Of a stretch of 64,000 bases of DNA, positions 10,625 to 13,285 are shown piece after piece (position 1 is the first letter of the stretch; every line of letters starts with the position of its first letter). The notes beneath the pieces are model-generated. The model searched no databases, had not been told where the DNA came from, and worked only from the letters and a program-made list of their open reading frames with translations. The translations under genes and the position numbers were made by a program. This DNA is from Zingiber officinale (taxonomy: Eukaryota > Streptophyta > Magnoliopsida > Zingiberales > Zingiberaceae): positions 48,516,722 to 48,580,721 of the forward strand of contig NC_056000.1 in the NCBI RefSeq assembly GCF_018446385.1, given 5' to 3'.

Positions 10625-11577
10625 AGGATGCGATGTGCTTATTTTAGATATTGGATTGGGAAGTGCAGAGAATCAAGCAAGGGTCAAGGAGTTGCTTCAT
10701 GTGGAGGAATCAAAACTAGAGGAGGATGAGGGTAAGTGTTTTTACTCATAATATTATTTTAGTTTCTGTTCAGATTAGTTGGCACTCGATTCTGTGCTTT
10801 AGGAAATACCACTCCAGCAGTGAGATGGGTTCGAGATGATAAATATGATTGCATCCGATTAAAGCATTGCAAGGTGAGCTATATTCACTGTGTATCCCCC
10901 CTTCAGAGTACATATGTATCTGTATAGTAATTAATTTCAATATAGGCACATCAAATTACCTTAATTGTTTCTGGACATAGACTTAATCCTTTGGATTACT
11001 TTATTTTAATTGGTAGAGTATTTGCCACTACCTTTCTATTATTCATTCTTTTGCTTTGCAGGTTGTGACAAAAATTGATTGGCATCGGAAAGGAGACTAT
11101 TTCACTACTGTCGTTCCTAGTGATATCCTAATTATGAATTTTAGTTGTACTTATTTTTAGTCATTCCTAGTGCCTATTTTATATCTCAGTTTTGTTTCTT
11201 TCTTTTTTCTAATACACACTGACAAATTGGAAATATATAAAAATCATGACATTATACCTAGTTACCTAGCCTTTGAGGCTGGAATCAGGATGAAACCTAA
11301 AGTGCCCTGAAAAGTTTAGGCATACCAAATTCTCTCAGTTTAATGGCAGAGGTCAGTTGTGTTGCAAACTTTGTTATTTTCCTTGTTTTTCATTTACCGC
11401 GTCTAGATTAAGAAACTATGGCTTTCTAACTCAAATAAAAATTGCAATTCCTGCCTATCTTAGACCTAACATTAACTTATTAATTGAACAGGTGTTTTAG
11501 ATTGTAAATTTCATCCGAGGCAGCCATGGCTATTCACAGCTGGAGCAGATTCTGTCATTAAACTGTATTGCCACTAA
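10625..11577 (+). pseudogene. BOP1: captured fragment of BOP1 ribosome-biogenesis WD40 gene
   Basis: Four exon-like pieces with intact-looking splice sites read as parts of the C-terminal half of BOP1, a pre-60S ribosome assembly factor. They are 10625-10731 (CDVLILDIGLGSAENQARVK...), 10803-10873 (VRWVRDDKYDCIRLKHCK), 11062 to about 11120 (VVTKIDWHRKGDYFTTVVPS) and 11492-11577 (GVLDCKFHPRQPWLFTAGAD, ending KLYCH and stop). In BOP1 homologues the KIEWHRKGDYFTTVVP motif lies ahead of the WD repeats and the CKFHPRQPWLFTAGAD motif at the very C-terminus, so the DNA between them is deleted here. The third piece runs out of frame after VVPS. The fragment is inside a CACTA element, so this is transduplicated host sequence and not the working gene. 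Confidence 0.85.
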
Positions 11578-12622
11578 TGATAGATTCTCCAGGAAACTTT
11601 GAAGAATCTCCTCGAGTCAAGATACGTGAGTACTTGCTGATCCTACATGACTACGGTAGCAAGTTCATGTTCTTTGCTTGATAATTTATTCTTTTTTGAC
11701 CAATTCATTTCCGTAAACCCCTTACCTGTAAGCACCAACTAGTATCCTTATTGTCAAGAATTAATTTTATCAACGACTTATAAGTTTGGTATGCATATTT
11801 CTTATGATGTTGAGCCTTGACTTTGAGACACATGATGGCTTTGTTTTATTTTTTTTTGTTGAATTTTCTATCCTGTAAGTTTCAACTCCACTAGTATCAT
11901 GTTTCCATAGATGATGCTGTCTTAGATGTTGGAGTCGTGACTCATTCTTTATACTGATGTTTCTGTGTGGAATTTTCCCAGTTGTCCTGTTCATTGTTTG
12001 ATGTTTCTGTGTGTGTTGTAGCTGAATTTGGTTGTAGCTTCTGCAAGCTTTCTTCACTTTCTTCCCTCCACTATCTGTTAACAAGTTTGATCTTTACAAT
12101 TCAGTTATAAGAACAAACAATATGACCAAAGGTTGACAGCTTTGCTTCATCCTTTTTACATTTCAGTATGTGGATGAAAGCAAATATGTACTGATGTACC
12201 TAAATGGATTTACAAAAATATCTTTGAAATGTTTTGTCATACAGATATGGCATCTAGTATAATTTTTTCCAACTTGATTGTTGCATTATCATATAATGAG
12301 ATTAGGTGCACAGCTTGCAGTCAGTTTATTGTTTTTGCTAAAGATCATTGTTAGTAGGCCGACAAAAGACAGGTCTAAAATGAAGCCTAAGAAAACATGC
12401 TTAAGATGATATTTTAAGATTTTCTAAACATTGGATCGTTGCGGAAGGTTGTGATTGGCACGGCAAGTGTTCTAAAATGAAGCCAAAGAAAATGGGGGAG
12501 AAAATAAGGTTCGGCTTGAGGAATTTATGCAATAAAGCAGTTTTATATTTGATTCCTTCTTTAATTATATTGCGTGTGTTCCTAAGCTGCAACCTATTAA
12601 TAATTTTAGTTTTATAATGTTC

Positions 12623-12784
12623 TTTGCCACTACCTTTCTATTATTCATTCTTTTGCTTTGCAGGTTGTGACAAAAATTGATTGGCATCGGAAAGGAGACT
12701 ATTTCACTACTGTCGTTCATAGTGATATCCTAATTATGAATTTTAGTTGTACTTATTTTTAGTCATTCCTAGTGCCTATTTTAT
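12623..12784 (+). repeat. second copy of a BOP1 exon segment (162 bp direct duplication)
   Basis: This 162 bp repeats 11021-11182 with one difference seen by eye (the codon after TACTGTCGTT). It includes the intron 3' end, the KIDWHRKGDYFTTVV exon piece and downstream sequence. The copies are 1,602 bp apart. The duplication happened inside the element after capture, or by two acquisitions of the same donor. Confidence 0.9.
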
Positions 12785-12902
12785 TCCTAGTCACCTTATT
12801 TCAATGACAAGAACAAGGGTTCTCATGGCCAATATGTGTCTATTAATGGGATTTTCAATGTCTTGCTTACCACGCTAATCCTACTTCTGATTGGATTTGC
12901 AG

Positions 12903-12991
12903 CTTCAAGATATCAAACTCTACACCTTCTATATGGAGCTAGATTTGCAAAAGCCATATCCAACTCGAGGAAGTGACTTATTGACATGGGA
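12903..12991 (+). pseudogene. exon-like fragment of unknown origin inside CACTA
   Basis: Flanked by an acceptor (TTTGCAG) and a donor (GAGGTAGGT), the frame reads LQDIKLYTFYMELDLQKPYP then TRGSDLLTWE without a stop. The splice-like boundaries suggest an acquired exon, but I do not recognise the protein family. Confidence 0.35.
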
Positions 12992-13182
12992 GGTAGGTGT
13001 ACCTCTTTAGTTCCGCTTTTAACCAAATATCCCTATAAAGATTCATTTGTGTGCTCTTAACATATCTATTCCTACAACGTTGTTATCTAGGATTAGCATT
13101 TATTTTGTTAAATGTGATTTATGCACCTATAATTATTTTGGTGAAGTTAGCATTCTATTAAACTAGATTATGACCTTTGCAG

Positions 13183-13285
13183 AGAACTTATTGGTAACCA
13201 AGGACTTTGTGAAGATAGTAAATTTTGGCCTTGCTCGTGAAGTTCATTCGAAGCCACCATTCACATAATAGGTTTCAACACGCTG
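13183..13285 (+). pseudogene. MHK: captured exon of a MAK/MHK-type protein kinase
   Basis: After a CTTTGCAG acceptor the frame reads [20 protein letters not shown] then VHSKPPFT, and beyond it VSTRW up to a GTAAG donor. This is the activation-loop exon of plant MHK/MAK-like CDK-related kinases (family consensus KIADFGLARE...YVSTRWYRAPE). The DFG motif has become NFG and two stop codons interrupt the loop before VSTRW, so no kinase can be made. It is a second host-gene piece carried by the CACTA element. Confidence 0.75.

What the first reader, a model, noticed from the sequence alone, without database searches (positions are those of the whole stretch)
10625..13285. Pack-CACTA carrying pieces of BOP1 and a MAK/MHK-type kinase
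Four BOP1 exon pieces (ending in the authentic C-terminal KLYCH stop) and one kinase activation-loop exon, both with splice-site-like edges, lie between CACTA ends with no transposase. Capture of two unlinked housekeeping genes by one CACTA is notable, and transcripts could feed small RNAs against the ribosome-biogenesis gene.
Basis: partly seen in the sequence, partly recalled or inferred. Interest (0 to 1): 0.72.

Follow-up and report, generated by a model that had tools for sequence, protein, structure and literature searches.

The report
Young gene-carrying CACTA transposon in ginger
A cut-and-paste transposon, in what appears to be the ginger genome, carries pieces of at least three ordinary plant genes and has recently spread copies of itself; it is a good example of a known kind of gene-carrying transposon rather than a new kind.

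Summary
It is one CACTA element, window 8584-14748 (6165 bp), with CACTA ends, subterminal repeats and a 3-bp target duplication (CGC); the allelic chromosome has the clean empty site. No transposase was found. All 20 other copies I read have CACTA ends and perfect 3-bp duplications; the 21 differ by 1.2% on average. Marker co-location shows groups with ALG9+kinase only, with BOP1 added, and with BOP1 and a truncated ALG9 (window type), which fits stepwise capture. The assembly matches published cultivated ginger. The kinase exon is broken in 21 of 21 copies read; no coding function is seen. Small-RNA action on BOP1 is possible and untested. Verdict: a young multi-gene Pack-CACTA family, a new member of a known kind.

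The parts
8584..14748 (+). Complete non-autonomous CACTA element (window copy, 6165 bp)
   Evidence: Ends CACTATAAGAAAAAACC / GGTTTTTGTTGTAGTG; the 20 other copies read have CACTA ends too
8581..8583 (.). Target-site duplication CGC, left
   Evidence: Single CGC in the empty allele on C16
14749..14751 (.). Target-site duplication CGC, right
8584..8614 (+). Left terminal inverted repeat
   Evidence: 84% complementary to 14718-14748 over 31 nt (I7)
14718..14748 (-). Right terminal inverted repeat; this 31-mer is found at 571 places with up to 1 mismatch
8607..8798 (.). Left subterminal ACATCGG/CCGATGT/ACACCGG/CCGGTGT repeats
14439..14725 (.). Right subterminal repeats of the same motifs
10589..11335 (+). 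Captured BOP1 segment 1 (exons 10625-10731, 10803-10873, 11062-11119 with introns)
   Evidence: 94.2% to host BOP1 gene L052
11336..11678 (+). Captured BOP1 segment 2 (last exon 11492-11577 with native stop, plus 3' flank)
   Evidence: 94.8% to L052; a 992-bp host stretch with exon sequence is missing at 11335|11336
12623..12784 (+). Second copy of a 162-bp BOP1 piece (exon 12664-12721)
   Evidence: 99% to 11021-11182; 97.5% to host
12792..13032 (+). Captured ALG9 fragment: end of one exon 12792-12835 and a whole exon 12903-12992
   Evidence: 75.1% DNA to host gene L061; ALG9 peptide of copy L060 joined with the window's exon hits PDB ALG9 9s6s at E 5.7e-10; the window's exon alone hits nothing
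13064..13331 (+). Captured MHK/MAK-type kinase fragment, exon 13183-13285 plus partial introns
   Evidence: 90.2% to host gene L058; reads [33 protein letters not shown]
13324..13418 (+). First copy of 95-bp direct repeat; the extra 706 bp that follow from it are in this copy and L041 only, of 21
14030..14124 (+). Second copy of the 95-bp direct repeat
8900..10588 (+). Element part of unknown origin (5' side)
   Evidence: No Pfam hit for its ORFs of 60 aa or more
11679..12622 (+). Element part of unknown origin between the BOP1 pieces
   Evidence: No match beyond short chance-level ones to the BOP1, ALG9 or kinase host loci read

Best explanation
It is a non-autonomous CACTA transposon of the Pack-CACTA kind. 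Shown: CACTA ends, 3-bp target duplications, an insertion present on one haplotype and absent from the other at this locus, and at least three captured host-gene fragments that keep introns, so they came from genomic DNA. Inferred: it is moved in trans by a CACTA (TNP2-type) transposase, whose domain is abundant in the genome. Inferred: an ALG9+kinase element existed first; BOP1 was added later; a 992-bp loss inside BOP1 and a replacement of about 530 bp by a 169-bp patch (162 bp of it a second copy of a BOP1 piece) then gave the window's subfamily, which spread recently. The fragments are most likely passengers. Any effect on the host would come through chimeric splicing or small RNAs, not through a made protein.
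For: CACTA ends and identical 3-bp flanks in 20 of 20 fetched copies plus the window; the 21 lie at 20 distinct sites. The 20 were the best-scoring other matches, so they lean to close relatives. Empty allele on C16 with a single CGC. Mean pairwise difference 1.2%, 0.4-1.1% to the consensus. Donors: BOP1 94.2-97.5% with introns, kinase 90.2% with intron edges, ALG9 75.1% (window) and 80.7% (L060). Groups by co-location of three markers: of 82 kinase-marker places 27 have the long ALG9 exon without the BOP1 junction, 14 have both, 25 have the junction without the long ALG9 exon, 16 have neither, 4 of these being host-gene alleles. A diverged relic (L062) has ALG9+kinase at 90.3% to L060, whereas non-exon BOP1 sequence of the consensus is 4.9% from the donor. 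TNP2 (PF02992): 6544 first-look candidates, 150 scored, 150 over the cut-off. Kinase exon has a stop and has lost the DFG aspartate in 21 of 21 copies read.
Against: No autonomous partner was identified: between the 100 listed right ends (of 571) and the 33 of 150 listed TNP2 matches on the same contigs the closest pair is 34 kb apart. Two unread transposon-like places, C14:66866183 and C2:17968053, match the kinase 30-mer with the tyrosine codon intact, so the stop is not universal. The BOP1 exon pieces have no internal stop in 21 of 21 copies, which could hint at coding, but at about 1% divergence is expected without selection. The ALG9+kinase group could be a deletion product; only one such copy was read, and only 801 bp of it; no full copy of the group with BOP1 and the long ALG9 exon was read. 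Nine other places hold the supposedly lost BOP1 stretch and could not be read.
Confidence: 0.9

Rival explanations
1. Stepwise order is reversed: the three-gene element came first and the ALG9+kinase group lost BOP1.
For: Copies with and without the BOP1 junction share the ALG9 exon at up to 100% aa identity, so they are close in time; only 801 bp of one copy without the junction was read.
Against: The relic L062 with ALG9+kinase is about 10% from L060, more than the BOP1 pieces are from their donor (4.9% non-exon), so the ALG9-kinase chimera predates BOP1 capture if rates are similar. The relic's own BOP1 status is open: a 36-mer search with 2 mismatches would probably miss it at 10% divergence.
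Confidence: 0.15
2. The captured pieces act: the element is transcribed and gives small RNAs that lower BOP1 expression in trans.
For: 547 perfect 21-mers and 492 perfect 24-mers of the window copy match the C1 BOP1 locus, introns included, against 57 and 45 for the kinase and 0 for ALG9; many copies. Review passages describe siRNA reservoirs in captured sequences (PMC13317346, passages).
Against: No RNA data. The pieces lie in sense order, and the repeat lists show no long inverted copy of a BOP1 piece inside the element (longest pair touching one: 34 nt at 71%). The same review passages suggest selection against silencing of essential donors.
Confidence: 0.15
3. Chimeric exon-shuffled protein: BOP1, ALG9 and kinase exons are spliced into a functional product.
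For: Splice edges look intact by reading; counted in 21 of 21 copies for the ALG9 exon (AG and GT), the first BOP1 acceptor (AG) and the second BOP1 donor (GT); the other edges were not counted properly because of a one-base offset. Tgm-Express1 exons are spliced in soybean (PMC1947982, passages).
Against: The last BOP1 exon ends in its own stop; the kinase exon has a stop and no DFG aspartate in 21 of 21 copies read; the longest stop-to-stop ORF wholly inside the element is 137 aa without a Pfam hit.
Confidence: 0.05
4. A local BOP1 gene was interrupted by a CACTA rather than captured.
For: None found.
Against: BOP1 genes are elsewhere (C1/C2, C13/C14); the same composite is at many sites, with its own target duplications in the copies read, and the C16 allele lacks it.
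Confidence: 0.01

Closest known systems
Pack-CACTA transposons of Arabidopsis, rice and maize (Pack-TYPE; PMC8903248, abstract and sections 9 and 10 read)
   Same: CACTA ends, no transposase found, captured host-gene DNA, several loci per element; the paper also shows (for PIF elements) subgroups with one capture added to another
   Different: Here three captures whose order can partly be read from subfamilies, and a later internal loss with a patch copied from an element piece; the worked examples in section 9 are much shorter elements of other superfamilies
Tgm-Express1 of soybean (PMC1947982, passages read)
   Same: CACTA element of 5.7 kb with several host-gene fragments that keep exons and introns
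   Different: Tgm-Express1 carries five fragments (UP, CDC2, FPK, M, CS) and their splicing was shown; here many young copies are seen but no RNA was examined
CACTA-like elements with captured gene fragments in Chenopodium (PMC8978399, passages read)
   Same: Host-gene fragments inside CACTA elements
   Different: The passages describe fragments upstream of an element's own transposase-associated domain; here no transposase was found

Membership tests
CACTA superfamily | Terminal CACTA...TAGTG inverted repeats | tested here: met
   Window and 20 of 20 fetched copies
CACTA superfamily | 3-bp target-site duplication | tested here: met
   Window CGC with empty allele; 20 of 20 fetched copies perfect
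CACTA superfamily | Subterminal short repeats in both orientations | tested here: met
Pack-CACTA (Pack-TYPE) | Non-autonomous: no transposase domain | tested here: met
Pack-CACTA (Pack-TYPE) | Contains DNA of host genes that exist elsewhere | tested here: met
   BOP1 L052, kinase L058, ALG9 L061. None of these genes was read end to end; the TGA that one search lists in the C1/C2 BOP1 matches falls on an apparent GTGAGA splice donor
Pack-CACTA (Pack-TYPE) | Mobile: copies at several sites | tested here: met
   21 copies at 20 distinct sites, empty allele
Pack-CACTA (Pack-TYPE) | Moved by an identified autonomous CACTA with the same ends | tested here: inconclusive
   100 of 571 ends against 33 of the 150 listed TNP2 matches (of 6544 candidates); closest pair 34 kb
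siRNA source acting on donor gene | Small RNAs that match both the element and the donor gene | not testable with these tools
   Only sequence identity counted

The most novel reading that the evidence does not exclude
This genome may hold a nearly complete series of gene capture by one CACTA lineage: relic ALG9+kinase, young ALG9+kinase, BOP1 still undeleted (perhaps the nine unread places), BOP1 with the 992-bp loss, then the 169-bp patch copied from the element itself. If so, it would show capture and reshaping through error-prone break repair that copies templates, not only through fusion of neighbouring elements, in a crop where at least one insertion is still heterozygous.
Probability: 0.3. 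Interest if true: 0.6.

Novelty: new member of a known kind. Interest (0 to 1): 0.4.

Why it matters
How CACTA elements pick up host genes is still argued from few cases (my view, from the passages read). Here the donors are in the same assembly, groups with fewer and more captured genes coexist, breakpoints can be read to the base in the copies held, and at least one insertion is heterozygous with its empty allele in the same assembly. That makes the order and mechanism of capture directly testable. It also warns that gene annotation may count these fragments as BOP1, ALG9 or kinase genes.

Tried and rejected
Rejected: local interruption of BOP1. Rejected: retrocopy or cDNA capture, because introns and flanking sequence are kept. 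Rejected: L059 (C15:48782720) as kinase donor, 84.7% over 144 columns against 91.6% over 275 for L058, both with the consensus; L057 (C15:59912000) is 66% over 113. The other kinase loci were not compared at DNA level, so a closer donor is possible. Led nowhere: search for an autonomous partner by intersecting right ends and TNP2 places (listed places only); donors of 8900-10588 and 11679-12622; a minus-strand exon-like piece at 13418-13560 (no hit). Catoni et al. 2019 on Pack-CACTA is not held; known here only through what say of it. My searches for a report of this in ginger were (listings); 'CACTA' has 0 occurrences in the main text of PMC8342452. This covers only the open papers of that library.

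Full report
WHAT IS THERE. The left end is CACTATAAGAAAAAACC, the right end GGTTTTTGTTGTAGTG, with ACATCGG-type subterminal repeats in both orientations near both ends. It is flanked by CGC on both sides. The homologous site on C16, found with the left flank, aligns through the insertion point with a single CGC and no element. So at this locus the insertion is on one haplotype only, and clean.

THE GENOME. The window lies at C15:48516722-48580721 of an assembly of 3,090,333,446 bases in 211 contigs. Contig C2 is 194,392,478 bases. The haplotype-resolved cultivated ginger assembly (PMC8342452, passages) has 22 pseudochromosomes of 88.69 to 194.39 Mb, a maximum scaffold of 194.39 Mb and a length of 3.09 Gb before scaffolding; it reports 219 scaffolds, not 211. 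I take the genome to be Zingiber officinale on that match; no tool named it. Several host genes appear in pairs on C1/C2, C13/C14 and C15/C16, as expected of two haplotypes.

CAPTURED GENES. BOP1: 10589-11335 and 11336-11678 are 94.2% and 94.8% identical to the C1 BOP1 gene, introns and 3' flank included; a 992-bp stretch of the gene, with exon sequence, is absent between them. The other BOP1 paralog (C13) is 77-88%. The four exon peptides, joined, match ERB1/BOP1 chains. A 162-bp piece around the third exon is present again at 12623-12784. Kinase: 13064-13331 is 90.2% identical to L058 on C15, a host place that matched, without mismatch, a pattern written to disfavour the transposon copies (most of its 76 hits were transposon copies all the same, at 1 mismatch). 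ALG9: the piece before the kinase gave no hit by itself and was named only after an element copy without the BOP1 junction was read (L060). The longer exon of L060, joined with the next exon, hits ALG9 in the PDB at E 5.7e-10 (Pfam Alg9-like family at E 0.061, below cut-off). The likely host gene is the C13/C14 pair (82% aa; C14 copy L061: DNA 80.7% to L060 and 75.1% to the window).

COPIES. The interval search gave 45 matches, 28 of them nearly full with the window's own, but only 40 of 195 candidates were scored. The 21 copies lie at 20 sites, because L031 and L032 share flanks and are alleles. Pairwise difference averages 1.2% (0.3-1.7%); distance to the consensus is 0.4-1.1%. The kinase marker occurs at 76 places with up to 1 mismatch, 4 of them host alleles, plus 6 places with the window's two-stop form, the window included: 78 transposon-like places. 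The BOP1 deletion junction occurs at 56 places. The right-end 31-mer occurs at 571 places, so this gene-bearing group sits within a larger family.

GROUPS AND ORDER. Co-location of three markers, misses included: 82 kinase places = 27 with long ALG9 exon and no BOP1 junction, 14 with both, 25 with the junction and no long ALG9 exon, 16 with neither (4 host). 56 junction places = 14 with ALG9 and kinase, 5 with ALG9 only, 26 with kinase only, 11 with neither. At least four of these 11 (L039, L040, L041, L045) are window-type copies that I read in full, so mutations in the 30-mer explain part of the misses. The spacing between junction and kinase is 1933-1940 bp in the window type, and 2238-2522, most often about 2300, in the 14 with the full ALG9 exon, except that the 1172-1178 and over-3500 cases fit neither. 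If the rest is colinear, which I did not read, this fits replacement of about 530 bp by 169 bp, of which 162 bp is the repeated BOP1 piece. A relic on C3 (L062) has ALG9+kinase, 90.3% identical to L060. Non-exon BOP1 sequence is 4.9% from its donor (37 of 759 sites), exon 2.2% (7 of 322). Together these favour ALG9+kinase first, BOP1 later, spread last. The order rests on partial reads and is inferred.

FUNCTION. In 21 of 21 copies read the kinase exon has a stop and lacks the DFG aspartate; the host exon reads intact. Two unread transposon-like places keep the tyrosine codon (C14:66866183, C2:17968053). BOP1 pieces have no internal stop in 21 of 21, uninformative at this age. Splice edges look intact by reading, so chimeric splicing as in Tgm-Express1 is possible (inference). 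The window copy shares 547 perfect 21-mers with the C1 BOP1 locus, exons and introns together. No RNA data were at hand. I judge the pieces passengers.

MECHANISM OF MOVEMENT. The genome holds many full TNP2 domains (150 of 150 scored over the cut-off, 6544 candidates). Trans-mobilisation by one of them is the standard inference for non-autonomous CACTA elements (recalled), not shown here; no TNP2 match was near a listed end (closest 34 kb).

UNRESOLVED. A 39-mer from the missing BOP1 stretch occurs at 11 places with up to 3 mismatches: two are the host gene on C1 and C2, nine are elsewhere and have no BOP1NT match. They may be undeleted captures. The origins of 8900-10588 and 11679-12622 are unknown. 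The window copy and L041 share an extra 706 bp that the other 19 copies read lack.

COMPARISON WITH THE KNOWN. Pack-CACTA elements with DNA from several loci are documented (PMC8903248, section 10), and section 9 shows, for a maize PIF family, a second capture added to a first. Multi-gene CACTA capture with introns is documented in soybean (PMC1947982, passages). So the kind is known; the listings show no description of this family in that open library.

CHECK. 

Noticed in passing
window 8311-8583 and 14749-19274: The CACTA sits in the left arm of an older element with long imperfect inverted repeats (84-87%), whose arms also align to the C16 allele; family not determined.
   Followed up: partly
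window 14749-14883 and 18899-19033: Inner part of the same inverted-repeat arms (83% complementary).
   Followed up: no
window 13324-14124: Extra 706 bp with 95-bp direct repeats, in this copy and L041 only of 21; its middle holds a minus-strand exon-like piece without Pfam or PDB match.
   Followed up: partly
G000 C3:128263224, C11:33346726, C16:64988553, C16:100216736, C5:5909801, C5:9377742, C11:58278960, C15:85309516, C3:88404358: Nine places outside the host gene with the BOP1 stretch that window-type elements have lost; C11:58278960 lies about 17 kb from a TNP2 match, weak given 6544 TNP2 candidates.
   Followed up: no
G000 C11:57824601, C11:57736020, C12:60807767, C62:51164, C97:50592, C11:56952302: Further ALG9-exon copies at 78-83% aa identity with stops, without the kinase or BOP1 marker nearby; may be another capture or pseudogenes.
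   Followed up: no
window 6150-7540: Minus-strand gene left of the element whose exons read like a histone deacetylase (recalled, not scanned).
   Followed up: no
window 21876-22433, 22982-24625, 37105-39285: Minus-strand ORFs with X8, NPH3 and P-type cation ATPase domains: ordinary plant genes.
   Followed up: yes
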